The notes below the pieces were generated by a model. The model was given only the letters and a program-made list of their open reading frames with translations, ran no database searches and was not told the DNA's origin. Both the position numbers and the translations under genes were made by a program. A stretch of DNA of 34,598 nt from Fimbriimonadaceae bacterium (GTDB lineage Bacteria > Armatimonadota > Fimbriimonadia > Fimbriimonadales > Fimbriimonadaceae), in contig JADLGZ010000010.1 in assembly GCA_020849075.1 (NCBI GenBank), forward strand, positions 1-34,598. Direction: 5' to 3'. Below, piece after piece: positions 2,653 to 33,934 of this stretch (the stretch's first letter is position 1; every line of letters starts with the position of its first letter).

Positions 2653-2728
2653 GGTCGGTTAGCTCAGTTGGTAGAGCACTACAATGACACTGTAGGGGTC
2701 ACAGGTTCAAGTCCTGTACCGACCACCA
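2653..2728 (+). tRNA. tRNA-Val (anticodon GAC), CCA encoded
   Basis: All four arms fold. The acceptor GGTCGGT pairs perfectly with ACCGACC, the D stem is GCTC/GAGC, the anticodon stem is CTACA/TGTAG with loop ATGACAC (anticodon GAC, valine), the variable loop is GGGTC, and the T arm is ACAGG-TTCAAGT-CCTGT. The length is 76 nt including CCA. It is the integration target of the downstream elements, whose sequence supplies its present 3' half, so the gene remains complete. Confidence 0.97.
2684..2728 (+). repeat. attachment core, copy 1 (45-bp direct repeat in the tRNA 3' part)
   Basis: This segment runs from the anticodon loop to the CCA end of tRNA-Val and recurs perfectly at 14115-14159 and 25335-25379. 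Identity begins exactly at the first base of the anticodon loop (the preceding base differs), which suggests strand exchange in the anticodon loop, a known integration sublocation of tyrosine recombinases. It is the left boundary of element 1. Confidence 0.93.
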
Positions 2729-2908: not shown

Positions 2909-3160
2909 ATGGAAGTGGGTTCGGGGCAAAAACTTGCTTATACGATTGACGAAGCAGCAGAGCTGCTCTCCCTATCACGGGCCAAGCTTTATCGACTTAT
3001 CGACACGTGCGAAATTGGCTCGGTCCTGATCGGTCGCTCCCGCCGTATCACGCACTCGCAGTTGGAGGAATTCCTTCGCCGCCTTGAAGCGCAGGATGTT
3101 GCTGCATCGTTGCACCTGCGGCAGCCGATTCGCCAATTTAGGCGCACCCAAGGAGCATAG
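2909..3160 (+). CDS. Excisionase-family DNA-binding protein (element 1)
   Basis: This 83-aa protein has the helix-turn-helix pattern of the excisionase/HTH_17 family: YTIDEAAELLSLSRAKLYRL is the recognition region and IGRSRRITHSQLEEFL the wing and following helix. Such proteins act as recombination directionality factors that bend att DNA and favour excision, and some also regulate int. The ATG at 2909 aligns with the homologues at 14345 and 25567; a further start exists at 2867. It ends 4 bp before int, a spacing kept in all three elements, so the two are probably co-translated. Confidence 0.82.
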   Translation: MEVGSGQKLAYTIDEAAELLSLSRAKLYRLIDTCEIGSVLIGRSRRITHSQLEEFLRRLEAQDVAASLHLRQPIRQFRRTQGA

Positions 3161-3164
3161 CTGC

Positions 3165-4310
3165 ATGAAAGGAAGAGCCGATGACAACGACGGCTCATGC
3201 CGTGAAATCTTGACAGGTCGCCATGCTGGAAAATGGCGCGTACAATTCCGTTACCTAGATGAGACCGGCGTAAGGCGCCGGCTCTCAAAACTGTTTCAAA
3301 CCAAGACTGAGGGCAAGAAGTACTTGCAATGCCTTCGCCGCGGAGGGCGAGTCCAAGAAGCGGCGCAGACTCATGAACTAACATTTGGAGAGTGGTTTGA
3401 GTGGCTAGCGGAAAACGACTGGCCAGAAACGCTCGCTAGTGTCACCATCGCACAGCGTAGAGCCCGATTCAGGAAGTACTCCGCAAAGGTCTTTGGAAAC
3501 CAGCCTCTTAGCGGCATCGACGCATTGAAGGTCCGCGCCTTCTATCGCGAGCTACGAGGAGCGGGTGCAAGCGATTCGCTCATCATTTCGGTGAAGAGCG
3601 ATCTCGTCAGAGCATTCAACCAAGCAATCAACCCGTATCAGCAAGTCCCTCACACACTCGCAAATCCGTTCAGGCTTTCAGTGTCACAGCCTAAGCCGAG
3701 AGCGGCAGTTGCCCTCTCTGTTGAGCAGGTGAAGAATGCTATCAGTAGCCCATCACTGAGCCCTAGCCAGCAGGCACTTCTTGGGCTGCTCTTGCTGGCC
3801 GGGCTTCGTCTCGGCGAAGTGATGGCTATCACCAGGCAGCAGCTACGTCTTGATGATAACCTTATCGCGGTTGATAGGGCCGTTAAAGTTGAGTTTGGCG
3901 GAAAGCAGAGCGTTGGACTTCCAAAGAAGGACAAGACTCGAAACGCCGTGATGTGTCAGACACTCCAAGCATTATTTGAATCCTTCATCGAAGGCATGGA
4001 GCCTGAAACACTTCTTTGGCCAGCGGTTAGTGACAATAAGCCAAGGATGAAGAAGCGATTCTACGAGTTTTGGAAGGAGGCAGCGAAGTCAGCTGGGTTG
4101 CCGCCAGAAATGTCTCCCCACGACTGCAGGCTGACTCACATAAACCTCATCGAGAAACTCATGCCACTGGTATCGCCAACGACCTTAAAGGAGCATGTCG
4201 GTCACTCAGCGACGGGCGTCACCGAAGCCAACTATACGAGGCCGCTTAGTGCTTCGCAGGAAATCCTAAGGCGCGAGCTGGATCGAGTTTTCGGAGAAAT
4301 GTCCCAATAG
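3165..4310 (+). CDS. Tyrosine recombinase integrase (element 1)
   Basis: This 381-aa integrase has an N-terminal arm-binding type region (about 1-60), a SAM-like core-binding domain (about 70-180) and a catalytic domain. Catalytic residues are visible: R215 in GLRLGEV, Lys in LPKKDKT (about 254-257), HDCR at 319-322, H347 in HVGHSA and the nucleophile Y357 in EANYTR. The ATG at 3165 is chosen because AAGGAG lies 9 bases upstream and the length then equals Int3. It should catalyse site-specific recombination at the tRNA-Val core. It is clearly more diverged from Int2 and Int3 than they are from each other. Confidence 0.95.
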   Translation: MKGRADDNDGSCREILTGRHAGKWRVQFRYLDETGVRRRLSKLFQTKTEGKKYLQCLRRGGRVQEAAQTHELTFGEWFEWLAENDWPETLASVTIAQRRARFRKYSAKVFGNQPLSGIDALKVRAFYRELRGAGASDSLIISVKSDLVRAFNQAINPYQQVPHTLANPFRLSVSQPKPRAAVALSVEQVKNAISSPSLSPSQQALLGLLLLAGLRLGEVMAITRQQLRLDDNLIAVDRAVKVEFGGKQSVGLPKKDKTRNAVMCQTLQALFESFIEGMEPETLLWPAVSDNKPRMKKRFYEFWKEAAKSAGLPPEMSPHDCRLTHINLIEKLMPLVSPTTLKEHVGHSATGVTEANYTRPLSASQEILRRELDRVFGEMSQ

Positions 4311-4385: not shown

Positions 4386-4409
4386 GGTAAGAGTTCTGTG
4401 TTTTCACCG

Positions 4410-4760
4410 ATGGCACTGAGTCACATTAATAACCCACGCAATGTTGGGCCGCTCGAGGGAGCGACCCACTATGGCGTTGCCGGTGTGCCAGGTGACGGAC
4501 CATTTGTTCAAATGTGGTTCATCGTAAACAGTGGCCAAATCGAACGCGGAACTTACAAGACCTACGGATGCCCAACCTCCATCGCCAGCGCGAGCATGAT
4601 TGCTGAGTTGGTGGCCGGAAAATCCGTAGAAACCGCACTCTCCTTAACCGAGGCTGACATTCGAGCTTTGCTTGCCTTTGTGCCCGAAGGAAAGGAAGAC
4701 TGCCCCCCAAGAGCGGTGCGCGCGCTCCAAAACGCGTTTGAGGAAAAGACTGATGACTGA
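4410..4760 (+). CDS. NifU/IscU-like scaffold protein with degenerate ligand set (element 1)
   Basis: This 116-aa protein follows the NifU N-terminal / IscU fold: HINNPRNVG at the start, YKTYGCPTSIASASM around C54, and KEDCPPRAVRALQNA around C98. In IscU the cluster ligands are three Cys, an Asp and a His. Here the first Cys position is P27 (VPGDG instead of xCGD), Asp D29 is kept, C54 and C98 are kept, and the His before the last Cys is D97. The protein may therefore bind a metal or cluster differently, or act as a structural adaptor. It starts at the ATG conserved in both copies and overlaps the next gene by 8 bp. Its place in an Rhs operon rather than an isc/suf/nif cluster is unusual. Confidence 0.8.
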   Translation: MALSHINNPRNVGPLEGATHYGVAGVPGDGPFVQMWFIVNSGQIERGTYKTYGCPTSIASASMIAELVAGKSVETALSLTEADIRALLAFVPEGKEDCPPRAVRALQNAFEEKTDD

Positions 4761-4983
4761 ACTGCCCTTTAGCCCGGCCCGTGGCCCTGTTCAAGATTGT
4801 GATTCATGCGGTGACCCGAAGGGCGGCGTTTGCGTATTTGGATCGAACAATTCGCACTCACTGATGATGCCTCCTGGCGCTCCTGGCAGTGGTCCCTGGT
4901 GTCCCGCACCAAATCTTAGTAATGCAAGTGACATGGACAGTTGGAAGTGTCATTACGTCCGCCTCCTCCTTTCAAATCCATGA
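4753..4983 (+). CDS. Small Cys-rich protein between NifU-like and Rhs genes (element 1)
   Basis: I do not recognise this 76-aa protein. It starts inside the 3' end of the NifU-like gene (8-bp overlap) and its stop overlaps the Rhs start as ATGA, so it is translationally chained on both sides. It shares with the element 2 copy the pattern LPFS, DCxSC, GGxCV, SLMMPPG, GxxCP and KC: five conserved cysteines in a protein that is otherwise quite diverged. There is no signal peptide or membrane segment. It could be a metal- or cluster-binding partner, a small tip or adaptor, or a chaperone for the Rhs protein; none of these can be shown from sequence. Confidence 0.7.
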   Translation: MTELPFSPARGPVQDCDSCGDPKGGVCVFGSNNSHSLMMPPGAPGSGPWCPAPNLSNASDMDSWKCHYVRLLLSNP

Positions 4984-7900
4984 TACGCCCTGAAGTTTGG
5001 CCTTGGGAAATTGATGCAGCATCAGGCGGCTGCAAGATTGATCCTGTTGCTCACCACCCTCACCGGCCAATCCCCGATCCTGCAACTGGCCACCTCGTGG
5101 CCGACCCTGATATCGTTCTCAAAGCCAAGGGTTTCGATCTTGAGATCAGCTTCTTTTACAGCACCGCGTCTCAACCTGGAGGCGTAATGTGGGGGAACCG
5201 GCGATCTGCGAGTGTCAATATGCAGATCAAAATTGACCAAGTCAATGGCAACGTGAATGTCATTCGTGGCGATGGGAAGGTTTACGGCTTCAGCGGGATT
5301 TGGGCGCCAAGTACACCAACTTCGATGACGCCAAATCCGACGCTGTACAGCGGAACCGAACTCTTATGGGACGGGAGCCAGTTCATAGAGACGTTCCCAG
5401 ATGGCAAGACTGTAACTTATGGAGAAGAGCTCCAGGCCGACACTTACTACGCAGTTAGTGAGATTGAAGACCTATCGGGAAATGTGCACGCATACACCTA
5501 CGACGGCATCAATTTGATCCGTATCGAGGTGCCAGGCGGAAACCGCGTCACGTTCCATTACGATGGCGACGGGCATGTCGAAATGGTCCAGGACTGGGGC
5601 GACCGCCGATGGTTGATGACCTACGATGAGTTTGACCAGCTCGAAACTTATACACTGCCAACGGGCTGTCAGACGCAATACTTTTACCCTGGCGACAACG
5701 GTCTAGTCAATGCCATTATGGACCCTCGGGGATATGTGTCGAGTTACACGTTCAATGACTTTGACCGTGTAGAAACGATGTCTCTCGGTACAGCTACGTG
5801 GACCTATACGTATTACCAGTATGCTGGCGGCCCCTTAGGCTCCCGCGTTGAGTCCCCTACCGGAGCGATTACAACCTACCTGCTTGATAGCGTCGGCTTT
5901 ACAATCGCCAAGGAAGTGCCGGAGGGCTACATTATTTCCTATGCCTACGATGCGACTGGGAACAAGATTATCGAGGAGATGCCTTACGGTCACGTCCTTA
6001 GCCTCACCTACAACGCATCCAATTTGCCCCTTACGAGCCGAGACCCTCTCGGCAATGTGACGACCTACAATTACGACGTCAATAACAATCTGGTCAGCCT
6101 CATGAATGCGCTTGGCGAGGTGACGACAATGACCTATGATGGGCAACGTCGCATGACGAGCCGAATGGACGCCCTGGGCAGAGTCACATCGAATGTTTGG
6201 AATACCGATGGCACCCTCAAGGCGCAAGTTGATGGGCGCGGACTTCGTACAACGTACGCCTATGACGCAGTAGGAAATCTAGCCAGCACGCTATACGCGG
6301 ACCACTCGGTGTCGACCTATACCTACGATGTTCTCAATAGGCGGATTTCTGCCAAGGACCCATTAGGGCGCGTGACTACAACGGCCTACGATGCGGTCGA
6401 CCACATTGTCTCGATCATGAACGCGGCCGGTGAGATATCGACTTTTATCTATGATTCCTGCTTCCTGCAACAGAAAGTGAACCCTCTAGGTTATCGCACG
6501 ACTTACACCTACGAGCGGTACGGAAAGGTCCGAACGGTTAAGAACGCCCTTGGGCAAGTCACGACGACCAACTACGACAATATGGGTTACCCTGTCACCA
6601 TTCAGAACGCTCTGGGTTACGTGACCACCATGATCTACAATGCCGCAAATCAAAGGCTTGCGGTTCAAGACGCCAATGGTAACCGAGTGACAACGGCATA
6701 TGATTTCGGTGGCAGGCCAGTCAATTTCATCAACGGAGAAGGCATCATAACAAGTACGGTTTATGATGCTCGTGGCCCGATCGCTTCAGAAGATGCCCTA
6801 GGCCGGCGAACGACGATGATTATGGATGCGCTGGGGAGGCGTATCGCAACGCAAACTCCCATGAACTTCCGAACTACCACGATCTACGATCAGGCAGGGC
6901 AGGTTCGGGCAACTCAGGATGCAAGAGGATTCCTAACCACAAATTGCTATGACCTGGCGGGCAATCTTGTAACCGTCTGTGATGCAAGAGGTTTTATTAC
7001 AACGCGGGTCTACGAAGATACCAGTAATCGAGTGAGAGTTAGTCAAGATAAGACGGGCGCTCGCACGACTTTCACTTACGATGTCTCGGGCCAACCCATC
7101 GCACTTCAGAATGCGAGGGGGTTTCGCACGACTCTTACGTTCGACCTCGCAGGTCGAACGAGGAGCATCCAGAATCCGTTTGGCTGGCGGACAACGTACA
7201 GCTACGATGCGGCCGGCCAAAACGTCGAGGTCAAAAACGTCAGCAGTTTTAGCCACACGACGATTTATGATGCCCTTGGGCGAGTCACGGCAACGCAAAC
7301 ACCACTCAATATTCGGACAACATATTCATACGATGCTGTTGGACACCAGATCGATACGCAAGACGCAGACGGGTTCCGATGGAGTACGATTTACGACCCA
7401 GCAGGACGCGCAATTGCCAGCCAAACGCCACTGAACAATCGCACGACAACCACTTATGACAAAGCCAATCGCCCAATCGAAGTGAGGAACCCACGGGGCT
7501 ATGTAACAACGAGCACGTACGATTTGGCGTCAAGAGTCATTTCCCAACAAAACCCGCTTGGTCATCTAAAGCAATTTGGCTATGATGCTGACGGGCGCAA
7601 TGTGACGATCGCCAACGCCATCGGCGGCATTATCACAATGGTGTACGACGAGGTCAGCCATCTTCTTGAAATTGCTAATGAGTTGAATCACAGGACAACC
7701 TATACTTACGACCCGGTCGGCAATGTGTCCACCAGGCGCTTCGCCAATGGGGATAGAACCACTTACTTGTACGATCCCGTTGGGCGGCAGATAGGCAGAC
7801 ACTACGCCGATAATGCACGTGTGACCTTAACATACGACGCCGTCGGGAACTTGGTGGAGCAAGCTGAAAACATTGGTTCAGGTTCCGCTCAAATGACCTA

Positions 7901-9653
7901 CGATTCCATCAATCGGATGGACTACCGTCAGGACCAGTACGACATGGCCTTGCAGTACTTCTATGAGCGTACCGGAGAGCTAGCCCAAATTTTCGACCCG
8001 GGCACTAGCAGTTATGTGTCTTCTTGGACCCGCGACCCAGATGGCCGCATCGTAAGATACGAGAACTCCAATGGAGATCCGATAGAGCCAAGCTATGATG
8101 GCAGGGGCCACAAAATCGCAATCTCTTATTACTCAGGCCACTTGCAGGAGTTTGCATTTGATAGCGATGGCCGTAATGTTGGTATCAAGGATACGGTAGG
8201 GTCCGAAGTCCAGCGCTTCACCTATACGTTCGATGGTAATGGTAATCGAACGGGGACACAAGATAAGAATGGCTCGACTTCGGCCTATGCCTATGATGCG
8301 CTCGACCGCATTGAGTCCGATACGACAACGGGGACGGACGCGCACACATACACCTATGTGTTTGATTCGCGAAGTAATTTGACTCACCATACCGAAGACA
8401 CGGTCATTACTACTATGACCTACGATGCGGCAAGTCGAATTCAGACGATGCAGATCGCCGCAGCTTCGGGAAGCTATGTTCATGACTTGAATGGAAACAT
8501 GGTGCAGAGCGGCGCCACAGTCATGACCTATGACAAGGAAAATCGTCTTCGAACAATTCCTGATAAGAACATCGGGGGAGCCATAGTAACCTTCACATAC
8601 GACGCCTTTAGCCGTCTGCGGGAAGAAAACTTTGGCGGTGACATCAATGAGGTCTATTGGCTCGATGATATTAGTATAGGTGAGCGATCTGACTCCACAC
8701 CAGTTGGCCAGTTTTCGAATATATACATGTCGCTTGACGGAGTCATCATGGGCGACACTGGAAATCCGTTCATTGCCCCAGAATGGTCCGACTATCTGGT
8801 CGACTTCCTTGGGTCTATTACTGGCGAAGTGGATGCAGGCGGAGGTGTTTCTGGAACCAGACGTTACAAGCCATTTGGCCCGCGCTTATCTGGTGCCGCC
8901 GTGGCTCGTCAAACATTTGGGTTTACGGGAAACACGGGTTCAAGACATACCGCCATAGCCTTGGCTGAACAATATAATCGGTTCCGAATTTACACGTCAT
9001 GGCTTAAGCAGTGGACGACACGAGATCCGATTTGGCCAAGCGAGTTGCCGTACTCTTATGTACAAGGTAATCCGACAAGTTGGCTAGACCCATACGGGCT
9101 TGCGCGAAATGGAGATATGCCTTCGCCTCCTAATCGACCCTTGATACCCACGGACGAAAACCCCGAAGATAATATAAACACGGGTTTTGATCCATGTCTT
9201 TCGATCGTGTTTCCGCTTGGGACATGGGGACCAGCCGCCATAACGCTAAAAATAAGGTTCTGTCAGCAACTTTATGACACAACTTGTTGTTTAGGTCCGG
9301 CGGCTTCAAAGTGTACTAAGATTCAGGCCTCTGTAGCGGCCGAACTACCTTTATCCCCAGCCGATCTGTTCGACAATCTTAGTGACCAAGTTAGTCAGGC
9401 AATTGAAGCGATCCTTGGTATAGCTGCAGGATTTGGAAATCTTACCGTTGGACAAGTCCCGATTAAGGGGTGCCCTGCTCCCCGACAAGACGTGACCGTG
9501 GAAGTATGTATTGGAGGGTGCATTTTTATTCAAACCCTAAAGGGCTGTTTTGCTATTCCACCTGGCAAGCTATACTTAGAGTCAAAGACTGGTTACTGTG
9601 GGATATTAAGTGCGGAGATAGAAGGCTCAATTTCGATCGAAAACTGTGAGTAA
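4980..9653 (+). CDS. Rhs/YD-repeat polymorphic toxin (element 1)
   Basis: The 1557-aa protein has an N-terminal region conserved with element 2 (PEVWPWEIDA, CKIDPVAHHPHRPIPDP) and several dozen YD repeats (TTTYDAxG types) from about residue 140 to 1280, which should form the hollow Rhs cocoon. The Rhs core follows (WTTRDPIWPSELPYSY, GNPTSWLDPYGL), after which a variable tip of about 190 residues with 11 cysteines begins. I recognise no enzymatic motif in the tip. The ATG at 4980 is chosen because it overlaps the upstream stop and aligns with the second copy. No PAAR domain, signal peptide or membrane segment is visible, so the export route is unclear. The downstream gene overlaps and is the probable immunity gene. 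Confidence 0.93.
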   Translation: MIRPEVWPWEIDAASGGCKIDPVAHHPHRPIPDPATGHLVADPDIVLKAKGFDLEISFFYSTASQPGGVMWGNRRSASVNMQIKIDQVNGNVNVIRGDGKVYGFSGIWAPSTPTSMTPNPTLYSGTELLWDGSQFIETFPDGKTVTYGEELQADTYYAVSEIEDLSGNVHAYTYDGINLIRIEVPGGNRVTFHYDGDGHVEMVQDWGDRRWLMTYDEFDQLETYTLPTGCQTQYFYPGDNGLVNAIMDPRGYVSSYTFNDFDRVETMSLGTATWTYTYYQYAGGPLGSRVESPTGAITTYLLDSVGFTIAKEVPEGYIISYAYDATGNKIIEEMPYGHVLSLTYNASNLPLTSRDPLGNVTTYNYDVNNNLVSLMNALGEVTTMTYDGQRRMTSRMDALGRVTSNVWNTDGTLKAQVDGRGLRTTYAYDAVGNLASTLYADHSVSTYTYDVLNRRISAKDPLGRVTTTAYDAVDHIVSIMNAAGEISTFIYDSCFLQQKVNPLGYRTTYTYERYGKVRTVKNALGQVTTTNYDNMGYPVTIQNALGYVTTMIYNAANQRLAVQDANGNRVTTAYDFGGRPVNFINGEGIITSTVYDARGPIASEDALGRRTTMIMDALGRRIATQTPMNFRTTTIYDQAGQVRATQDARGFLTTNCYDLAGNLVTVCDARGFITTRVYEDTSNRVRVSQDKTGARTTFTYDVSGQPIALQNARGFRTTLTFDLAGRTRSIQNPFGWRTTYSYDAAGQNVEVKNVSSFSHTTIYDALGRVTATQTPLNIRTTYSYDAVGHQIDTQDADGFRWSTIYDPAGRAIASQTPLNNRTTTTYDKANRPIEVRNPRGYVTTSTYDLASRVISQQNPLGHLKQFGYDADGRNVTIANAIGGIITMVYDEVSHLLEIANELNHRTTYTYDPVGNVSTRRFANGDRTTYLYDPVGRQIGRHYADNARVTLTYDAVGNLVEQAENIGSGSAQMTYDSINRMDYRQDQYDMALQYFYERTGELAQIFDPGTSSYVSSWTRDPDGRIVRYENSNGDPIEPSYDGRGHKIAISYYSGHLQEFAFDSDGRNVGIKDTVGSEVQRFTYTFDGNGNRTGTQDKNGSTSAYAYDALDRIESDTTTGTDAHTYTYVFDSRSNLTHHTEDTVITTMTYDAASRIQTMQIAAASGSYVHDLNGNMVQSGATVMTYDKENRLRTIPDKNIGGAIVTFTYDAFSRLREENFGGDINEVYWLDDISIGERSDSTPVGQFSNIYMSLDGVIMGDTGNPFIAPEWSDYLVDFLGSITGEVDAGGGVSGTRRYKPFGPRLSGAAVARQTFGFTGNTGSRHTAIALAEQYNRFRIYTSWLKQWTTRDPIWPSELPYSYVQGNPTSWLDPYGLARNGDMPSPPNRPLIPTDENPEDNINTGFDPCLSIVFPLGTWGPAAITLKIRFCQQLYDTTCCLGPAASKCTKIQASVAAELPLSPADLFDNLSDQVSQAIEAILGIAAGFGNLTVGQVPIKGCPAPRQDVTVEVCIGGCIFIQTLKGCFAIPPGKLYLESKTGYCGILSAEIEGSISIENCE

Positions 9654-10140: not shown

Positions 10141-10665
10141 TTAGTTGGTTAACATTTCGCATTTGCGCGGGATCCGTCCGATTCCGTAGCAATCGACAAG
10201 TCGGTCTGGCTCTACAGTGTGTTCCCAAACCTGCACGCTTTCTAAACCTTTCAAAAGACCTTCCATTCCTCCGATTCTGATTCGCCAACAATCCAGCGGA
10301 TATGGGTGGTATGGCCACGAAGCAGGAGCGGTAAGTACGAGCCATCCCCCCGGCTTCAGCACGCGGCGCATTTGCTCGACGGCAATCCACGGTGTCTCCA
10401 TGTGTTCGAGGGCCTGCCCGGAAAGCACGATATCAAACTCGCGACCGAGGGAAACAAGATCATATGCACTGACGACTCTATCGACATTAGGTCCCGCCGT
10501 CATGTCAGTTCCAAAGTAGGAGAGCCCCAGGGATTCAACGATGGGTCGGTAAGTCCCGTTTACGTCGTAAGAACCCACGTCCAAGAGTTCGCCTTCGCCA
10601 TGCTGGTTTTCAGCAACGATCTTTGTTAGCAACTCACCTATGGTCCGATAACTCGACTCATGCAT
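10141..10665 (-). CDS. Class I SAM-dependent methyltransferase
   Basis: The 174-aa protein shows a Rossmann methyltransferase pattern: motif I LLDVGSYDVNG, an acidic residue at the end of strand 2 (YFGTDM), SGQALEHM after strand 4 (FDIVLSGQ) and RRVLKPGGWLVLTAP as post-motif. This is the Methyltransf_11/type 12 style often found with glycan or nucleotide-sugar genes. The ATG at 10665 is preferred to the GTG at 10680. It is divergent from the gene starting at 10707. Its substrate is probably a sugar or a surface glycan, from the neighbouring glycosyltransferases. Confidence 0.8.
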   Translation of the reverse strand: MHESSYRTIGELLTKIVAENQHGEGELLDVGSYDVNGTYRPIVESLGLSYFGTDMTAGPNVDRVVSAYDLVSLGREFDIVLSGQALEHMETPWIAVEQMRRVLKPGGWLVLTAPASWPYHPYPLDCWRIRIGGMEGLLKGLESVQVWEHTVEPDRLVDCYGIGRIPRKCEMLTN

Positions 10666-10706
10666 TTCGACAGTGTACACTTGACGCTCCTAGGTACTCT
10701 GCTCAA

Positions 10707-11336
10707 ATGGTGCCAACGGTCAAGATATTCGTGCTCTCACACGATCTAGCCACGCTTCGGCTGGTGCCCTTGTCAAGGGAGTTCGAAACCATCCATCTTG
10801 GATCTCTAGCCGTCGGCGAATATCAATCCAACCAACTCGGTGAGTGCCGTGCTTTCTTTCAGAACTTCAGCGGCGTGGATGCTGATTTCATTGGATTTGC
10901 AAACGCCAGGTGGGATCAGAAGTATTTTCAGTTGCACACCAGGTTGCATTCGCTCGTCGAGCAGACCCGCCGATTAGCTGCTCCTGGCTGGGTGCTTGCG
11001 CCGTGGCCCGCGCACAGTTGGATTGATGTTACTTTGCATCACCATCCAACCATGAAGCCTTTACTTGATGAGCTTCTCATCACAATGGACATCACGAAAA
11101 ATAACCATCGACTGTCTCTTTGGGCAAATGACTTCGTATGCCATCGCAGTGTGTTCTTGGACTGGCACAGGTTTTGGCAAACAGCCTTCGGCCATTTCTA
11201 TAGCAAGTATGGCCTTGAATTGCCCTTTGGGAAAGAAGGCACAGATGAGTCCAGGCACGCAGCTTTCTTCTTTGAACGAATCACTACCGCTTATTTTGCG
11301 AATCGGCTCGATGTGAGAATCGCTCCCTTCGAATAG
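10707..11336 (+). CDS. Conserved-looking protein in the glycosyltransferase group
   Basis: This 209-aa protein is not confidently recognised. It begins KIFVLSHDLATLRLVPLS and contains QSNQLGECRAFF and ADFIGFANARWDQKYF, which loosely recall DUF4422-type polysaccharide-biosynthesis proteins (a peptide-like start, an N-x-G-E-x-R element, then an aromatic R-W motif). It has a His-rich stretch (TLHHHPTM) and no signal peptide. The ATG at 10707 is chosen over the TTG at 10623 because the homologous-looking fold starts there. Its position upstream of two glycosyltransferase-type genes supports a role in glycan synthesis. Confidence 0.6.
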   Translation: MVPTVKIFVLSHDLATLRLVPLSREFETIHLGSLAVGEYQSNQLGECRAFFQNFSGVDADFIGFANARWDQKYFQLHTRLHSLVEQTRRLAAPGWVLAPWPAHSWIDVTLHHHPTMKPLLDELLITMDITKNNHRLSLWANDFVCHRSVFLDWHRFWQTAFGHFYSKYGLELPFGKEGTDESRHAAFFFERITTAYFANRLDVRIAPFE

Positions 11337-11380
11337 CATCACGGTTCACTTTCATGAGGCAAAATGAGTGAGGAGCGACG

Positions 11381-12184
11381 ATGACATCTGTAGTAGTAGT
11401 TACCTATCTTTCTGCCAGCACGATTGAAGTTTGCCTCGCCTCTTTACTCGACCATACGCCAGGTGAGTTTGAAATTATTGTCGTTGACAACGCGAGCTCA
11501 GATGGAACCCTAGTCATTACTGAGAGAATGGCTTTGCGAGATGAGCGGATTTCGGTTTATAGGAATACGGAGAACCTGGGTTACAGCAGAGCGCTCAACG
11601 TTGGGTTGAAAGCGGCCAAAGGTGATGTCCTCGTCTGCCTCAACCCAGATACCGAGGTCTTTGTAGGGTGGCTATCGCCCATTCTAAATGCGATTGCTTT
11701 GCCAGACGTCGGCGCAGTAGGGCCAGTGAGCGATGTTGTTGGTGGCCAGCAATGCCTTAGCCACTACCTGGACCGCTCCGTTGGTCCTTATCCAGACATG
11801 GTCAGGTGGCTAAAGCGGCACTTCGCCGGCGAAACAGTCGAAACGAAGCTGCTCATTGGATTCTGCATGGCGTTCTCGCGGAAAGTTATGGAGCGCGTCG
11901 GATTGATGGATGAGGACCTCATCTTGGGGGCTGATGACATGGACTACTCATGGCGTTTGCGGCTTGCCGGTTATCGGTTGCTCGTGGTCAAAGATTCATT
12001 CGTTCGTCACATCTGTGGAGTTAGCTTTGGGCAACTCGAGAGTACAAAGAAGGCTCAGATGGTCCGTGAAAGCGACCTAGCCCTCAAACGAAAGCTCGTC
12101 GCTCACTATGGCGATATCTCCAATTTATCATCCGATTACCTGTTTGGATGCGACATCTTTGAGCATGTATTGAGGGAAGCGTAA
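11381..12184 (+). CDS. Family 2 glycosyltransferase (GT-A fold)
   Basis: The 267-aa protein has the GT2 signatures VVVVTYLSASTIEVCLASLL at the N-terminus, VVDNASSDGT (nucleotide binding), NLGYSRALNVGL, the metal-binding-type NPDTEV and the acceptor-side GFCMAFSRKVMERVG with GADDMDYSWRLRLAGY. It should transfer a sugar from a nucleotide-sugar to a glycan or protein acceptor in the cytoplasm. It is co-linear over its whole length with the C-terminal half of the fusion protein at 28961-30568, including the SVSF/GVSF segment and C-terminal tail. A GAGGAGCG sequence precedes the ATG. Confidence 0.9.
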   Translation: MTSVVVVTYLSASTIEVCLASLLDHTPGEFEIIVVDNASSDGTLVITERMALRDERISVYRNTENLGYSRALNVGLKAAKGDVLVCLNPDTEVFVGWLSPILNAIALPDVGAVGPVSDVVGGQQCLSHYLDRSVGPYPDMVRWLKRHFAGETVETKLLIGFCMAFSRKVMERVGLMDEDLILGADDMDYSWRLRLAGYRLLVVKDSFVRHICGVSFGQLESTKKAQMVRESDLALKRKLVAHYGDISNLSSDYLFGCDIFEHVLREA

Positions 12185-12185
12185 G

Positions 12186-12893
12186 TTGCACGCTGCGATA
12201 ATCTGTCATGACGACTCGCTCTACTTAGGCGCAGTCATTGAGGCTCTTGAGGGTCTCCCGGCGACGGTGTTTGTCAATGAAGTTGCTTGGGGGAATGCTG
12301 AGCCGGGCGATTGGGTTGAGACGGCCCGCATCGCGCAAGCGTGCGGTGCTTCCGTGATTACAGGATGCTGGGCAACTGAAGAAGCCCACCGATTGGCCGT
12401 TATCCAATGGGCGCAACAGCAGGGCATCCAGCATTTGTTGATTCCCGATTCCGATGAAATCCTAAGCCCTGATTTGTTGGATTCCCTGCGAAAGATTGCT
12501 TCGACAGACCTAAGCGATGCTGTGTATTGCACGATGGACACGTATTGGAAGAGTCCGGAGTACGTGATTGAGCCGCGTGAACGCCTGATGCCGGCAATCA
12601 TGGTGAATCCGCTTTCAGCGGGGTATCACGGGATTCGGCAATTCTCTGGCACTCGCCCATTGATGTTGAGCCACGAGCACGGCGTCTTGCACCACTTGAG
12701 CTACGCTGGCCCGGAAAGCCGCATTGCCCGAAAGGTAAGTACCTGGAGCCATAAGGATGAGCTAGTCGCGGATTGGTGGAAGGACATTTGGTTGCGGTGG
12801 GATGGCGAACGGAGACTGCGAAATCTGCACCCTACAGTCCCTGTCGCGTACGGCGAAGCGATCCGGCGGCCGATAGGCAAATCTCGACTTTAG
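12186..12893 (+). CDS. Glycosyltransferase-like protein, probably with altered C-terminus
   Basis: The 235-aa product starts at a TTG one base after the preceding stop. It matches residues 1-230 of the 1002-aa protein at 30542 along its length: AAIICHDDSLYL versus AAYCVHDDNTYL, an IPDSDE acidic motif versus TIDSDE, TYWKSPEYVIEPRE versus TYWKDAEHVVRPRE, VLHHLSYAG and STWSHKDE. The DSDE element suggests a metal-dependent GT-A-like fold. Homology fades after NLHPT near 12840. The last about 20 codons read across a junction with the opposing gene, so the native C-terminus may be lost. It is probably co-transcribed with the GT2 gene upstream. Confidence 0.72.
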   Translation: MHAAIICHDDSLYLGAVIEALEGLPATVFVNEVAWGNAEPGDWVETARIAQACGASVITGCWATEEAHRLAVIQWAQQQGIQHLLIPDSDEILSPDLLDSLRKIASTDLSDAVYCTMDTYWKSPEYVIEPRERLMPAIMVNPLSAGYHGIRQFSGTRPLMLSHEHGVLHHLSYAGPESRIARKVSTWSHKDELVADWWKDIWLRWDGERRLRNLHPTVPVAYGEAIRRPIGKSRL

Positions 12894-14114: not shown

Positions 14115-14159
14115 ATGACACTGTAGGGGTCACAGGTTCAAGTCCTGTACCGACCACCA
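14115..14159 (+). repeat. attachment core, copy 2 (element 1 / element 2 junction)
   Basis: A perfect 45-bp copy of the tRNA-Val segment from the anticodon loop to CCA, without the tRNA 5' half. It is the right end of element 1 and the left end of element 2. The bases before it (GAATTCCT) match copy 3 and differ from the real tRNA, as expected of an element-derived end. Confidence 0.93.
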
Positions 14160-14344: not shown

Positions 14345-14584
14345 ATGGATCAAGCAAAGCTGTGCTACACCGTTGATGAAGCAGCCAGCCTTCTTTCGAT
14401 AAGCCGTGCTCAGGTGTACCGCTTAATTGATAGGGCCGACATCGCCTCAATAAAGGTCGGACGGTCTCGGCGGATTACACATGCTCAACTGATTGAGTTC
14501 TTGAAGAGGCTTGAGGCAAAGGACAAATCGACTTTGCTCACCTGGCATGCGATTCGCACGACACCGCAAACTCGGCAACGCTAG
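14345..14584 (+). CDS. Excisionase-family DNA-binding protein (element 2)
   Basis: The 79-aa protein has the same HTH_17/excisionase layout as its two paralogues: YTVDEAASLLSISRAQVYRL followed by VGRSRRITHAQLIEFLKRLE. The ATG at 14345 aligns with the element 3 start; a TTG at 14339 would add two residues. It ends 4 bp before int. The differing recognition-helix residues (SISRAQV versus SLSRAKL in element 1) suggest some divergence in DNA contacts. Confidence 0.82.
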   Translation: MDQAKLCYTVDEAASLLSISRAQVYRLIDRADIASIKVGRSRRITHAQLIEFLKRLEAKDKSTLLTWHAIRTTPQTRQR

Positions 14585-14588
14585 GGGT

Positions 14589-15728
14589 ATGAGACATCGA
14601 GCCGATAATAATGACGGCTCATGCCGTGAAATCTTAACAGGTAAGCACGCTGGTAAGTGGCGCGTCCAATTCACCCTCCGGACCGACACCGGGAGAAAAA
14701 GTCGCTTGTCCCGGATCTTTCGCACCAAGAGTGAGGCAAAGTCGTTTCTTCACCAGCTCTTGAGAGGCGAACGCATTGAGACTACCTTTGCCAGTAAGGA
14801 AACGACAATGGGAGACTGGTTTGAGTGGCTAGCCGAAAACGATTGGCCCGAGTCCATTGCTGAGGTCACCATAGCTCAACGAAGAGCACGGTTCAAAAAG
14901 TATGCCCAGGCACACTTTGGACGGATGCCTTTGTCCTCAATCGATGCCGTGCGCGTTAGAGCCTTTTATCAGGAACTTAGAGCGCAAGGAGCGAGTGCGT
15001 CGCTGCTTGCTTCCGTAAAGAGTGACCTTGTCCGAGCATTTGGGCAGGCCATCACTCCTTACCAGAAGATTCCAACCTCTAACGCGAATCCGTTCCGGCT
15101 ATCTCTGCCAGCTCCCGAGCGACGAGCAGCTGTTGCCTTATCGGTTGATGAAGTAAGGGCCGCGATACATTCGCAACGACTTGACTCAAGCCAACGAGCT
15201 CTACTCGGACTCCTGCTATTGGCAGGGCTTCGACTAGGTGAGGTCATGGCCATGACTAAGCAGCAGCTAATGATCGATGAGAACCTAATTGCGGTCGATA
15301 GGGCCGTCAAGGTCGAATTCGGTGGCAAGCAAAGCATTGGACTTCCTAAGAAGGACAAGACCCGCAATGCAGTGATGTGCCAAACGCTGAAGTCGATCTT
15401 ACTCCCATTTATTGCAGACCTTGGGCCAGAGGTACTCCTGTGGCCCGCGGCTAGTGAGAATAAACCTCGAATGAAGAAACGGTTCTACGAATTCTGGAAG
15501 GCGACCGCGGCCGCAGCTGGTCTACCCAAGGAGATGTCGCCCCACGACTGTAGACTGACGCACATCAATCTTATTGAGAAACTCATGCCAAAGGTGTCGG
15601 CAACGACTTTCAAAGAACACGTTGGGCATTCAGCAACTGGCGTTACTGAGGCGAACTATACGAGACCCATCTCGGCCTCTCAGGAAATCCTCAGGTCAGA
15701 ACTTGATCGAGTGTTTGGTTGTAACTGA
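14589..15728 (+). CDS. Tyrosine recombinase integrase (element 2)
   Basis: The 379-aa protein is closely related to Int3 over its whole length, and less closely to Int1. The catalytic set is intact: Arg in AGLRLGEV, Lys in LPKKDKTRN, HDCR in SPHDCRLTH, His in EHVGHSA and Tyr in TEANYTRP. The ATG at 14589 gives the N-terminus MRHRADNNDGSCREIL shared with Int3; the TTG at 14511 lies inside xis and is rejected. The enzyme is expected to recombine the tRNA-Val core, and the presence of three active-looking integrases on one target allows excision of single or joined elements. Confidence 0.95.
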   Translation: MRHRADNNDGSCREILTGKHAGKWRVQFTLRTDTGRKSRLSRIFRTKSEAKSFLHQLLRGERIETTFASKETTMGDWFEWLAENDWPESIAEVTIAQRRARFKKYAQAHFGRMPLSSIDAVRVRAFYQELRAQGASASLLASVKSDLVRAFGQAITPYQKIPTSNANPFRLSLPAPERRAAVALSVDEVRAAIHSQRLDSSQRALLGLLLLAGLRLGEVMAMTKQQLMIDENLIAVDRAVKVEFGGKQSIGLPKKDKTRNAVMCQTLKSILLPFIADLGPEVLLWPAASENKPRMKKRFYEFWKATAAAAGLPKEMSPHDCRLTHINLIEKLMPKVSATTFKEHVGHSATGVTEANYTRPISASQEILRSELDRVFGCN

Positions 15729-16229: not shown

Positions 16230-16733
16230 TCACCATGAGCCCATGACTTCGGGTTTTAGAGTATGCCGTTCGACGCGAACCCCAAGGGCACTGCCTTCGT
16301 AGGGAGCAAGGTAATTGAAGGCGTAATTGTGCCACCGTTTATCCTCACTAACCTTAAACCGGGCTGGGTTAAGCAGTGACCATCGCGTTTCACGAACTTT
16401 CTTCCAGGCGATACGAAGTGCCTGGACCTTGCTAGGCGCCGCAGGCTGGACAGTAGACGAACCCCGGATCTTCCGCAGATAGGGCGGCTCAAGGTTGATG
16501 CTTATTTCCCAATCAGGATACGACTTTGAGTTGACGATCACCACGCTTTCCTTTGGTTCGATGACAATTTGATCACCGTTAACCTGGGGGACTGCGTCAA
16601 GGTTTCGGTCTAGTGCCGTCCATATTTCGGCTTCCCTGTCAGGAGCCGGGGAGGTTCCACTTTGCGCGGCCGTCGGGTTGCAGCCAACCACGGACGCTCC
16701 CAAAAGGACTACCAGATAAAGCCCCAATCGCAT
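16230..16733 (-). CDS. Putative lipoprotein immunity protein for the zincin-type toxin
   Basis: The 167-aa product begins with a lipoprotein signal, MRLGLYLVVLLGASVVGC, with lipobox VVGC and lipidated Cys at 18. The ATG at 16733 is used because the signal starts there; the longer frame from 16766 would bury it. It overlaps the 3' end of the toxin gene by 25 bp on the same strand. The mature part is not recognised. Lipid anchoring places it in the periplasm or on a membrane, where it would meet an exported toxin. The immunity role is inferred from overlap and order. Confidence 0.65.
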   Translation of the reverse strand: MRLGLYLVVLLGASVVGCNPTAAQSGTSPAPDREAEIWTALDRNLDAVPQVNGDQIVIEPKESVVIVNSKSYPDWEISINLEPPYLRKIRGSSTVQPAAPSKVQALRIAWKKVRETRWSLLNPARFKVSEDKRWHNYAFNYLAPYEGSALGVRVERHTLKPEVMGSW

Positions 16734-18682
16734 ACACCGCACTCCTTTGGCAAGGCAACGCCACAATTGTACTCAAACTTGACGTTCCAGCATGCACTTT
16801 TTATGACAATACAGTAGTCGTCAAAGCACTTTTTGTATTTAGCTCCTGTGAATTTGGAACAGTCGTTTTTTTGCCCTTCAATCAAACACTTCAAGGAGAG
16901 AATGTTTGCACGGCACTCGGACTCGTTCACAAACTGCTTCGGTAATGGCGGCACGTAAAACCCATGCTCGTGGCAACCTAGCCCACCCTTTTTATTGCGC
17001 CAGTCTATATGATCGCGCTCGTGCTTCTTTATACAATTGTAGATCCCAATAGGCCAGTCCTTCTTAGTATTGTAAACGCACGCATGCATTACCCCATCGC
17101 AGCACACTAGGCCGCCATATTGATTCTTGCTGACGAGGCCCTTGTGCTCAGCGTATCGGCAGGGTCCCCCGGGCCACGAACCGCACTCGTGTGGAGTGGG
17201 CCAGTCACTTGCGCATGGTGCTAAGCCAGTGGGATCAATGTACGTTGTAGGATTGCCCATCGCGTACGCGTATGGGGGTTCGCCGCCGATCCATTCTGCC
17301 TCCCGAACCCTGGTCGTGAATTGGGCGAGGCCGGTCATGTAGGGGCGATGTCCGGGCTGGTATTGGGTAAACGGTTGCGGACCCGATACCTGCGGCGTTG
17401 GCCGCGGTGGTCCAGACGCTTTCGGAACTTGGTTAGTTGGTGGTTTCATTTGACGCTCTCGGTTTTGACGTTTGATTTCTTGGATTCTCTTGATTTCTTC
17501 CAACTGGCTTACTCTTGGTAACGGATTCTCAAGTGAAAATGGTCCCAAGGATTGGCCGTCTGGCGTGCTGAAGGTGATCTGTTGACCGCTTGCCACTCTT
17601 TGCATCTCATAAGTCGCGCCGTTGGGGATAGCTTCCTTGGCGATTACGCGGGCGACCTCGCATTTCAGAGCTACGGAACAGCCTGGGAGCCAATTTGGCC
17701 GCTTGTCTTGCTTCGTTATCTTGCCGCGCGGAGGTATCAGGTCACCCTCCAGATCGATTGGATCGCCGCTGTATTCGAAGGCAAGCAGCAAGCAGGCATC
17801 GATTGACTTGCGCACTGACTCCTTACTTCTGTAGCCGTTTTCAAGCACCGCTTTCGCCATGCCTGCGGCTAGTAAGGCAAGCTCTGGATCGTACTGGCGA
17901 ACAATTTCGCTGGCGCTTGTGGCTGGAAGTGGCAAATTGGTTGTGGGCATTGTCGTCAAAACGATGTCTGCCGCAAGTGCCAACGCCATAAAGACCCCTT
18001 CCCGCCTCGTTTCTGGCCGATAGCCTGCTTCCATTGCCCTGCCCAACGAGGCCATGCTCTCCTCATGTGCGACGTGAATCACGTCAACATCAAAGCCCTT
18101 TTCCGCAATGATTTCGTTCACCCATAGATCAAGAACGAAGGATTGGACAAAGCAAAGCTGGTTCATGCGCGGTCCATCCTTAACCTCGCGAAAGACCCGT
18201 TCATCCTCTCCTTGCTCAACGAATTCGATCCATGCGTGTCCCAGCTCATGCGCAAGGTGCGTCTCATGCACTCGTGCCGCGTCGATAAAGAGAAGGACGA
18301 AGTCAGGGTGGCCGATCGTATTGATGTAGTGGCACTCGAGCGCACCTTTGTCGCGCCTCAACTCGGGAGTTGTGTCGAAGATCGCCAACTCCTTTGGCGT
18401 GCATGCCATTACCTGGTCGATAAACTGCACGAGCTTATCGCTGAGGTTTCTAATGCTGACAACGGGATACAGGTCATCGTCAGAGGGGCCTTGTTCTCGA
18501 ATTCGGCCGATGGTATTTACGGTCGGAGCGTGCCCATGTTGTTCGACAACGAACTCGATGGCGTGCTTGTTCGTGAGCTTTGCACCCAAAGCGGGAAGGC
18601 TGTGGGTGTACCGCCTCATCACGACATCGCCGGTTGGCGAAGCGACCATCAACGCATCTCTTTGTATGTTGCTGGCTTGCAC
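16709..18682 (-). CDS. Zincin-domain protein with Rhs hinge and Cys-rich zincin-like toxin tip
   Basis: The protein is 657 aa from the GTG at 18682; an ATG at 18649 is equally plausible and fits better a TATACT -10 at 18697-18692. The N-terminal domain holds a zincin motif, HELGH at 145-149. A Pro/Gln-rich linker follows (about 400-455), then a minimal Rhs hinge without any YD barrel: FTTRVREAEW, PPYAYAMGNPTTYIDPTGL. The last about 185 residues form a tip with 17 cysteines and a second HExxH, CIKKHERDHIDW, plus a downstream Glu in NESECRANI that could be the third zinc ligand (gluzincin-like). It probably delivers a metallopeptidase toxin whose partner is the overlapping lipoprotein gene. The peptidase substrates are unknown. 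Confidence 0.75.
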   Translation of the reverse strand: MQASNIQRDALMVASPTGDVVMRRYTHSLPALGAKLTNKHAIEFVVEQHGHAPTVNTIGRIREQGPSDDDLYPVVSIRNLSDKLVQFIDQVMACTPKELAIFDTTPELRRDKGALECHYINTIGHPDFVLLFIDAARVHETHLAHELGHAWIEFVEQGEDERVFREVKDGPRMNQLCFVQSFVLDLWVNEIIAEKGFDVDVIHVAHEESMASLGRAMEAGYRPETRREGVFMALALAADIVLTTMPTTNLPLPATSASEIVRQYDPELALLAAGMAKAVLENGYRSKESVRKSIDACLLLAFEYSGDPIDLEGDLIPPRGKITKQDKRPNWLPGCSVALKCEVARVIAKEAIPNGATYEMQRVASGQQITFSTPDGQSLGPFSLENPLPRVSQLEEIKRIQEIKRQNRERQMKPPTNQVPKASGPPRPTPQVSGPQPFTQYQPGHRPYMTGLAQFTTRVREAEWIGGEPPYAYAMGNPTTYIDPTGLAPCASDWPTPHECGSWPGGPCRYAEHKGLVSKNQYGGLVCCDGVMHACVYNTKKDWPIGIYNCIKKHERDHIDWRNKKGGLGCHEHGFYVPPLPKQFVNESECRANILSLKCLIEGQKNDCSKFTGAKYKKCFDDYCIVIKSACWNVKFEYNCGVALPKECGVCDWGFIW

Positions 18683-18897: not shown

Positions 18898-18921
18898 GGT
18901 AAGAGTTCTGTGTTTTCACCG

Positions 18922-19263
18922 ATGGCACTGAGTCACATTAACAACCCTCGCAACGTGGGGCAGCTTGAAGGAGCGACCCATTACGGCGTTGCCGGCGTGC
19001 CGGGTGATGGACCTTTCGTCCAAATGTGGTTCATCGTAAACGGTGACCAAATCGAGCGCGGGACTTACAAGACCTACGGATGCCCAACCTCCATTGCCAG
19101 TGCGAGCATGATCGCTGAGCTAGTGGCCGGAAAGTCCGTAGCAACGGCGCTCTCCTTGACCGAGGCAGACATTCGAGCTTTGCTTGCATACGTGCCCGAG
19201 GGAAAGGGCGACTGCCCGCCAAGAGCAATACAGGCGTTACAGAACGCATTGGAGAAGTTATGA
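18922..19263 (+). CDS. NifU/IscU-like scaffold protein with degenerate ligand set (element 2)
   Basis: This 113-aa protein is a near copy of the element 1 protein. It shows the same substitutions at cluster-ligand positions: VPGDG in place of the first Cys motif, YGCPTSIAS with Cys kept, and KGDCPPRA with Cys kept but Asp in place of His. Keeping both the losses and the remaining ligands in two diverged elements suggests selection for this altered site, not decay. Its stop overlaps the ATG of the next gene as ATGA. No isc, suf or nif partner genes are nearby. Confidence 0.8.
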   Translation: MALSHINNPRNVGQLEGATHYGVAGVPGDGPFVQMWFIVNGDQIERGTYKTYGCPTSIASASMIAELVAGKSVATALSLTEADIRALLAYVPEGKGDCPPRAIQALQNALEKL

Positions 19264-19487
19264 CGACAATGGGATCTTTGCCGTTTAGTCTAGGGAGTGA
19301 TTGCCCTAGCTGCGATCAGCCTACTACAGGCGGGATGTGTGTTGTAAGCGCAACCCGAGCCTATAGTTTGATGATGCCGCCTGGGCTTGGCAATAATGGC
19401 GGATTCTGCCCAGTACAAAACATGGCAGCCGATGTTGATAGTTCGGAAAAGAAGTGCGAGCATGCCCCGCCTCCGCCGCCCATTTAG
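19260..19487 (+). CDS. Small Cys-rich protein between NifU-like and Rhs genes (element 2)
   Basis: The 75-aa protein overlaps the upstream stop by 4 bp and ends 17 bases before the Rhs ATG. It keeps all five cysteines of the element 1 copy (DCPSC, GMCV, FCP, KCE) and the SLMMPPG segment, and ends in a polyproline tail (HAPPPPPI). Low overall similarity with strict cysteine conservation points to metal binding or disulfides. I do not recognise the family. Confidence 0.7.
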   Translation: MTTMGSLPFSLGSDCPSCDQPTTGGMCVVSATRAYSLMMPPGLGNNGGFCPVQNMAADVDSSEKKCEHAPPPPPI

Positions 19488-25334: not shown

Positions 25335-25379
25335 ATGACACTGTAGGGGTCACAGGTTCAAGTCCTGTACCGACCACCA
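25335..25379 (+). repeat. attachment core, copy 3 (element 2 / element 3 junction)
   Basis: The third perfect 45-bp copy of the tRNA-Val 3' part. It closes element 2 and opens element 3. Only tRNA 3' sequence is present, so this is not a functional tRNA gene. Confidence 0.93.
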
Positions 25380-25438
25380 TCCTTTTTGAACCTAAAGAGC
25401 TTGCTTCCGAAGCACTTTTGCGAATTCACTCCGGCGAG

Positions 25439-25469
25439 GTCTCTCAGTTAGTCTCTCAAATGGTCTCTC
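25439..25469 (+). promoter_or_regulatory. Three phased GTCTCTC heptamers right of attachment core 3
   Basis: GTCTCTC begins at 25439, 25451 and 25463, spaced 12 bp, 60 bp after the core. The geometry equals that at element 2. Confidence 0.6.
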
Positions 25470-25566
25470 AATTGCGCCCCCAGAAAGTTGAGGGCCGGTT
25501 GAGCGGCGACTCAATTCTAAGGCAGATCATCCTGACGCCAAGGAATGGCCATTACAGCATTGGCCT

Positions 25567-25806
25567 ATGGATCAAGCAAAGCTGTGCTACACCGTTGAGG
25601 AAGCAGCCAACCTTCTTTCGATAAGCCGCGCGCAGGTGTATCGACTCATTGATAAGGCCGAACTCGGCTCCGTAGCAGTTGGGAGGTCGCGGAGGATCAC
25701 CCATGCCCAATTGCTGAATTTTCTTACAGGGCTTGAGGCAAAAGACAATTCGTCCTTGCCCACGTGGCAAGCGATTCGCATGAAGCGGCAACACGAGCAA
25801 CGCTGA
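25567..25806 (+). CDS. Excisionase-family DNA-binding protein (element 3)
   Basis: The 79-aa protein is very similar to the element 2 protein (MDQAKLCYTVEEAANLLSIS, then AVGRSRRITHAQLLNFL). It ends 4 bp before int3. It is probably the directionality factor for this element. Near identity of the helix-turn-helix with that of element 2 suggests that each could act on the other's ends. Confidence 0.82.
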   Translation: MDQAKLCYTVEEAANLLSISRAQVYRLIDKAELGSVAVGRSRRITHAQLLNFLTGLEAKDNSSLPTWQAIRMKRQHEQR

Positions 25807-25810
25807 ACGC

Positions 25811-33583: not shown

Positions 33584-33934
33584 CTACTTCACTCGCCTAT
33601 ACCTAATGTTTAGGTGTAACTCCCCCTCAGTTGCAACAACCGAGGCCGAGTCATCGCTGGCCCACGGGTATAGCTCATACTCTCTTGTTCTTCCTTGGCT
33701 TGTCACGCTCAGGCGGTAAACCGGCTTTGTTGGATATAGCCTTTCACTTCTCAATATCTCGCGCCCATCAAGTCTTAGGACCTGGGAAGTGTCGCTTCTC
33801 GCAATCAACACCGGATTTCCGACAAAGAAGAACCCATACACGACCAAAATCAAAATCGCGAGGCCCAAGAATATGAAAACGAATTTTCCGCGTGAATTCA
33901 CAGCAGGTACCCCTGATTCCACAGTGCCCCGCAT
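33584..33934 (-). CDS. Putative membrane-anchored immunity protein for the element 3 Rhs toxin
   Basis: The 116-aa product starts at an ATG within the Rhs 3' end (37-bp overlap). One strong membrane segment, about residues 18-38 (FVFIFLGLAILILVVYGFFF), is followed by a soluble domain of beta character that I do not recognise. A TTG at 33946 would add four residues. Gene order, overlap and topology match the other three toxin/immunity pairs here. Confidence 0.65.
   Translation of the reverse strand: MRGTVESGVPAVNSRGKFVFIFLGLAILILVVYGFFFVGNPVLIARSDTSQVLRLDGREILRSERLYPTKPVYRLSVTSQGRTREYELYPWASDDSASVVATEGELHLNIRYRRVK

What the first reader, a model, noticed from the sequence alone, without database searches (positions are those of the whole stretch)
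4410..4760. NifU-like proteins lack the first ligand Cys and the ligand His but keep Asp and two Cys
Both copies have P27-G28-D29 where IscU has Cys-Gly-Asp, and Asp at 97 where IscU has His, while D29, C54 and C98 remain. Identical changes in two elements that differ elsewhere argue for selection on an altered site. The protein may bind a different metal, hold a cluster shared with a partner, or be purely structural.
Basis: partly seen in the sequence, partly recalled or inferred. Interest (0 to 1): 0.7.

Follow-up and report, generated by a model that had tools for sequence, protein, structure and literature searches.

The report
Dead IscU-fold partner of RHS operons
Two mobile elements, and many other places across the bacterial phylum Armatimonadota, carry a relative of the iron-sulfur scaffold IscU that has lost its cluster-binding site and almost always sits just ahead of a small cysteine-rich protein and a giant RHS protein, so it appears to have been repurposed as a helper of RHS systems.

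Summary
The NifU-like genes exist, but the ligand reading is off by two residues. Phmmer, profile alignment and one homologue that keeps Cys at this position put D29 under IscU Cys37 and P31 under Asp39. So Cys37->Asp, Asp39->Pro and His105->Asp changed; Cys63 (C54) and Cys106 (C98) remain. The fold is IscU (AF2 pLDDT 89; Z 19.8).

The altered site is not peculiar to the two elements. It defines a clade (support 99/94) across Armatimonadota that includes a Planctomyces plasmid protein. In 48 representatives G28, G30 and C54 are invariant; 29 is Asp/Glu in 38; 31 is Pro in 41, never Asp; the His-Cys pair is lost variably. dN/dS is 0.05-0.10.

In 40 of 47 testable loci an RHS gene follows within 2 kb, usually after a small Cys/Gly/Pro-rich ORF; 0 of 17 canonical paralogues do. 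In at least one locus a five-Cys segment is fused to the RHS N-terminus. A GT2-GT2-TPR gene precedes 22 of 52. SufU, not this protein, adjoins a cysteine desulfurase in the three genomes checked.

Best explanation: an ex-scaffold accessory (chaperone/adaptor) of an RHS polymorphic system, here mobile cargo at tRNA-Val. The biochemical step is inferred.

The parts
4398..4760 (+).
   Evidence: PF01592 E 2.7e-21; homologue starts
4753..4983 (+). small Cys-rich protein, 76 aa, overlaps NifU* and RHS genes
4980..9653 (+). RHS protein 1, 1557 aa, with variable C-terminal tip
   Evidence: RHS_repeat 1.1e-82
18910..19263 (+). NifU* copy 2 (91% identical)
19260..19487 (+). small Cys-rich protein, copy 2, 75 aa
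19505..24247 (+). RHS protein 2, 1580 aa
   Evidence: RHS_repeat 2.1e-89
2653..2728 (+). tRNA-Val, integration site; 3' end 2684-2728 is the left att copy
2909..3160 (+). excisionase-like HTH_17 gene, element 1
   Evidence: PF12728 E 1.5e-11
3165..4310 (+). tyrosine integrase, element 1
   Evidence: PF00589 E 3.3e-12
14115..14159 (+). att repeat between elements 1 and 2 (45 bp, perfect)
14345..14584 (+). excisionase-like gene, element 2 (by similarity to element 1, read from sequence)
14589..15728 (+). tyrosine integrase, element 2
   Evidence: phmmer match to integrase 1
25335..25379 (+). att repeat at the right end of element 2

Best explanation
The protein (here NifU*) belongs to a clade of IscU/NifU-fold proteins that gave up Fe-S scaffolding: it lost Cys37, Asp39 and the LPPVK chaperone motif, and in part the His-Cys pair. 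It now serves as a dedicated cytoplasmic accessory of an RHS polymorphic system, made from one translationally coupled operon, nifU* - small Cys-rich gene - rhs. Shown: fold, register, clade, site conservation, purifying selection, synteny with RHS, separation from the SufU-desulfurase pair, and mobile-element cargo status of the window copies. Inferred: NifU* binds the small Cys/Gly/Pro-rich protein (in some loci apparently the N-terminal segment of the RHS protein itself) through the surface around the conserved PG[DE]GP[YF] loop and invariant C54, and keeps it reduced, folded or delivery-competent until it joins the RHS shell; a chaperone/adaptor role, not cluster assembly.
For: IscU fold: AF2 pLDDT 89.2, pTM 0.84; Foldseek E 9e-12; VIA Z 19.8 to A. 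fulgidus IscU. Register and ligand loss. Clade monophyly 99/94 with a Planctomyces plasmid member. Conservation in 48 representatives. dN/dS 0.05-0.10. RHS within 2 kb downstream in 40/47 loci versus 0/17 canonical NifU_N loci; three contig-end loci (L035, L098, L124) also run into RHS by Pfam. Small ORF between them. A five-Cys segment fused to the RHS N-terminus in L103, Cys-rich RHS N-termini in L123 and L129. Cysteine desulfurase adjoins canonical SufU in G022, G001, G011 and is far from NifU*. Two near-complete genomes without RHS hits (G014, G019) also lack NifU*. Scores below the NCBIfam equivalog cut-offs for NifU, IscU and SufU.
Against: No binding or chaperone data exist; the adaptor step is inference. 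RHS also occurs without NifU* (G007, G013). Several loci pair NifU* with glycosyltransferase genes and no RHS directly downstream (L105, L113, L122 and the Planctomyces plasmid), so the partner could be the glycosylation machinery. HC is kept in 13/48, and one member (L059) keeps Cys29, Cys54, His97 and Cys98, so some members might still bind metal.
Confidence: 0.55

Rival explanations
1. NifU* still holds a metal or cluster, bridged between its remaining ligands (D29, C54, D97, C98) and the cysteines of the small protein, and delivers it to the small protein or RHS.
For: Acidic residue at 29 in 38/48, C54 in 48/48, HC or DC kept in 17/48; small proteins have mostly five Cys; L059 keeps four possible ligands.
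Against: Ligand pair 97-98 is YY, HL, RS, PM and others in many members that keep the same operon; no desulfurase in the neighbourhood; Asp39 and LPPVK, linked to cluster turnover and transfer, are gone.
Confidence: 0.17
2. NifU* is an accessory of the neighbouring GT2-TPR / GT / methyltransferase machinery that modifies the RHS or the small protein, and its link to RHS is through glycosylation of a shared substrate.
For: GT2-GT2-TPR gene directly upstream in 22/52 loci (Pfam); GT1/GT9/methyltransferase neighbours in deeper members; GT-methyltransferase-GT2-TPR upstream in the Planctomyces plasmid with RHS five genes away.
Against: More than half of the loci, including the window elements, have no GT directly upstream (recombinases or others instead), while RHS is nearly constant.
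Confidence: 0.18
3. NifU* is a sulfur carrier: C54 takes a persulfide from a desulfurase encoded elsewhere and passes it to the Cys-rich protein.
For: C54 = IscU Cys63 is invariant; in IscU, Cys63 can receive sulfur from IscS (PMC2854127).
Against: Cys37, proposed there as the most likely first sulfur acceptor, is gone; no desulfurase adjacent.
Confidence: 0.06
4. Decaying scaffold paralogue with no function, carried along with RHS.
For: Variable loss at 97-98.
Against: dN/dS 0.05-0.10; clade-wide motif; conserved synteny at deep divergence.
Confidence: 0.02

Closest known systems
IscU / NifU N-domain Fe-S scaffold (PF01592; PDB 4eb5, 3lvl, 7c8m)
   Same: Fold (Z 18-20), 33-36% identity, Cys63 and, in the window copies, Cys106
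   Different: Cys37->Asp, Asp39->Pro, His105->Asp, LPPVK->VPEGK; not next to a desulfurase; below equivalog cut-offs
SufU zinc-dependent sulfurtransferase (6jzv, 5xt5)
   Same: Same superfamily fold (Z about 14)
   Different: A separate clade; the genomes searched have their own SufU, which keeps CGD and in the three genomes checked adjoins a desulfurase
RHS polymorphic toxin systems (WapA, T6SS Rhs)
   Same: YD repeats, DUF6531-like N-terminus, conserved core end DPxGL followed by a variable C-terminus, orphan core-tip cassettes
   Different: No PAAR hit in Pfam; a NifU* and a separate Cys-rich protein precede RHS; a contractile sheath is found in only 6 of 31 family genomes
Rhs accessory chaperones of the T6SS (effector-associated accessory protein, PMC4524185, abstract only)
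   Same: Small gene next to rhs, presumed helper of the RHS N-terminus (analogy only)
   Different: IscU fold; no known link in the papers searched

Membership tests
IscU/NifU Fe-S scaffold | NifU_N / IscU fold | tested here: met
   PF01592 E 2.7e-21; AF2 + VIA Z 19.8
IscU/NifU Fe-S scaffold | ligand Cys37 | tested here: not met
   Asp29 in the window; Asp/Glu in 38/48, Cys in 1/48
IscU/NifU Fe-S scaffold | Asp39 | tested here: not met
   Pro31; Pro 41/48, never Asp
IscU/NifU Fe-S scaffold | Cys63 | tested here: met
   C54, 48/48
IscU/NifU Fe-S scaffold | His105-Cys106 pair | tested here: not met
   Asp97-Cys98 in the window; HC in 13/48
IscU/NifU Fe-S scaffold | LPPVK chaperone motif | tested here: not met
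   VPEGK here, [LIV]PEGK in most members
IscU/NifU Fe-S scaffold | cysteine desulfurase in the neighbourhood | tested here: not met
   adjoins SufU, not NifU*, in G001, G011 and G022; no desulfurase hit near NifU* in G009
IscU/NifU Fe-S scaffold | binds or assembles a cluster | not testable with these tools
   needs purified protein
IscU/NifU/SufU equivalogs (NCBIfam) | curated score cut-off | tested here: not met
   78 vs 187.9 bits (NifU_clost), 57 vs 192 (iscU), 37 vs 92.5 (SufU)
RHS polymorphic toxin system (the operon) | RHS repeats and conserved core with variable C-terminal tip | tested here: met
   RHS_repeat 1.1e-82 and 2.1e-89; 59-83% identity over the first 900 columns vs 18-26% at the C-terminus
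RHS polymorphic toxin system (the operon) | toxic tip with cognate immunity gene | not tested
   no Pfam family hit for the adjacent 157-aa and 144-aa ORFs
T6SS Rhs effector | N-terminal PAAR and contractile sheath genes | tested here: inconclusive
   no PAAR hit in the Pfam scans of the RHS proteins; sheath in 6/31 family genomes, none found in the incomplete window genome

The most novel reading that the evidence does not exclude
An Fe-S scaffold fold has been exapted as a specific maturation factor for RHS systems: NifU* delivers or templates something (a metal, a persulfide, or a defined thiol/disulfide state) on a small Cys-rich protein that then plugs or caps the RHS shell.
Probability: 0.2. 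Interest if true: 0.85.

Novelty: new variant of a known kind. Interest (0 to 1): 0.6.

Why it matters
Annotation pipelines would be expected to call these proteins Fe-S cluster assembly scaffolds (the Planctomyces plasmid member is so annotated), while sequence, tree and context say they are not. A phylum-wide pairing of an ex-IscU protein with RHS genes points to an undescribed accessory for RHS systems that lack an obvious secretion signal. It gives a directly testable case of how a metallocluster scaffold loses its cluster and gains a new role: deeper members sampled often have Asn or Pro at 39 with the Cys of the HC pair kept, while later clades often lose the pair.

Tried and rejected
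Single-protein scan of viral contigs found nothing; plasmid and phage tblastn rows shown were annotated or unannotated IscU/NifU/SufU-type hits, and of these only the Planctomyces plasmid protein was read. The idea that RHS delivery depends on a contractile system was tested and not supported (6/31 genomes). The idea that the ~290-aa downstream genes are a new conserved component was rejected: they are split-off RHS core plus tip cassettes. The idea that the 97-98 Asp-Cys is the selected new site was rejected at family level. Literature searches for NifU/IscU with RHS found no prior report, but only open-access papers are held. A whole-genome search beyond Armatimonadota was not possible with the genome tool.

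Full report
What is there. The window (contig C10 of a 78% complete genome whose relatives are named Chthonomonas/Fimbriimonadaceae, phylum Armatimonadota) holds two tandem integrative elements at a tRNA-Val gene. A perfect 45-bp copy of the tRNA 3' end occurs at 2684-2728, 14115-14159 and 25335-25379. Each element has an excisionase-like HTH gene, a tyrosine integrase, a NifU_N gene, a 75-76 aa Cys-rich gene and a 1557-1580 aa RHS gene. In both copies the NifU* and small genes overlap, and in element 1 the small gene and RHS overlap by ATGA, which suggests translational coupling (read directly). Homologues start with [MV]FS, so the true start is probably GTG 4398.

Observation check. The evidence is for D29-G30-P31 over Cys37-Gly38-Asp39: phmmer to solved IscUs is ungapped there, hhalign of 20 homologues against canonical IscUs gives the same register, and homologue L059 has Cys at exactly position 29. 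The changes are therefore Cys37->Asp, Asp39->Pro and His105->Asp, with Cys63 and Cys106 retained. LPPVK, a motif recognised by chaperone proteins (PMC3789972), is VPEGK here.

Structure. AF2 on an alignment of nine own and related sequences gives pLDDT 89.2 and pTM 0.84. Foldseek and VIA-align place it on IscU (query TM 0.81-0.87 for the best IscU chains; Z 19.8, rmsd 2.3 over 119 residues to 4eb5), with SufU lower (Z about 14).

Homologues outside the elements. Searches of relatives and of 251 genomes of the phylum gave 61 loci with the altered motif, 48 after clustering at 80% identity. G28, G30 and C54 are invariant. Position 29 is Asp 22, Glu 16, Gly 3, Arg 3, Gln 2, Cys 1, His 1. Position 31 is Pro 41, Asn 4, never Asp. 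Positions 97-98 are HC 13, YY 7, DC 4, YC 4, HL 4 and others. In the tree these form one clade (99/94), sister to canonical IscU/NifU and apart from SufU. A Planctomyces plasmid protein (PGQGPFM) is inside it. Among the three copies of this genome and one of a congener dN/dS is 0.05-0.10. The site is thus an inherited, selected clade feature, not something that arose in the two elements.

Neighbourhood. With at least 2.5 kb downstream sequence, 40 of 47 loci have an RHS ORF starting within 2 kb on the same strand; none of 17 canonical NifU_N loci do, though 15 of those controls had only about 1.5 kb of flank or less. Three further loci at contig ends run into RHS by Pfam. Between them usually lies a 68-108 aa protein rich in Gly, Pro and Cys, often with an N-terminal [LV]PF motif and a C-terminal CP. 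Among 27 short ones, 26 have an odd Cys number, mostly five; these were picked by eye and are related, so this is a lead only. Three versions carry a Hint-like insert (L097 by eye; L049 and L109 by weak, sub-threshold Pfam hits). In L103 a five-Cys segment is fused to the RHS N-terminus, and L123 and L129 have Cys-rich RHS N-termini. This suggests that the small protein corresponds to an N-terminal segment of the RHS protein. A GT2-GT2-TPR gene is directly upstream in 22 of 52 loci. Some deeper members sit by other sugar-modifying genes. In the Planctomyces plasmid a GT-methyltransferase-GT2-TPR gene and a second GT precede NifU*, with RHS five genes away.

Not the housekeeping scaffold. Relatives encode SufU with the CGD motif. 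In G001, G011 and G022 a cysteine desulfurase adjoins SufU, and no desulfurase hit lies near NifU*. NifU* scores fall far below the equivalog cut-offs for NifU, IscU and SufU.

Mechanism. Shown: fold, site, clade, selection, synteny, cargo status. Inferred: NifU* is a cytoplasmic helper of the RHS operon that binds the small Cys-rich protein or RHS N-terminus via the PG[DE]GP loop/C54 face. Loss of Asp39 is compatible with a permanently structured protein, since D39V does this in human ISCU, though D39A has opposite effects in the human and E. coli proteins (PMC3789972). A metal role cannot be the common function because many members keep only one Cys of the site. A glycosyltransferase-linked role is the main rival. 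Contractile sheath genes are found in only 6 of 31 family genomes, so the export route of these RHS proteins is open.

Verdict. The larger finding is the phylum-wide NifU*-small-RHS operon, for which the open-access literature searched gave no earlier report.

Noticed in passing
L043:957-4453 (-), L046:1442-2446 (-), L107, L051, L053: The ~290-aa ORFs after the RHS gene in many loci are split-off RHS core plus variable Cys-rich tip cassettes, in tandem arrays in some loci.
   Followed up: partly
window 33898-34596 (-): Orphan RHS core-tip cassette at the right edge of the window.
   Followed up: no
window 16709-18682 (-): 657-aa protein with HELGH motif whose C-terminus is an RHS-type core end (NPTTYIDPTGL) plus Cys-rich tip; no Pfam hit.
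   Followed up: no
L097:9816-10412 (+), L049, L109: The small protein between NifU* and RHS carries a Hint / pretoxin-HINT-like insert in three loci (two by weak Pfam hits, one by eye).
   Followed up: partly
small proteins listed: Cys count is odd in 26 of 27 short versions (mostly five), suggesting disulfide pairs plus one free Cys or a four-Cys site plus one; not corrected for ancestry.
   Followed up: partly
window 25335-26956: Third att copy followed by another tyrosine integrase (25811-26956): possibly a third tandem element whose right end was not sought.
   Followed up: no
window 10141-12893: Methyltransferase-like (by eye) and GT2 genes between RHS 1 and the end of element 1, echoing the sugar-modifying neighbours of NifU* elsewhere.
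   Followed up: no
L059:7983-8345 (+): One NifU* keeps Cys at 29 plus C54, H97 and C98 (all ligands but Asp39): a candidate that may still bind metal.
   Followed up: no
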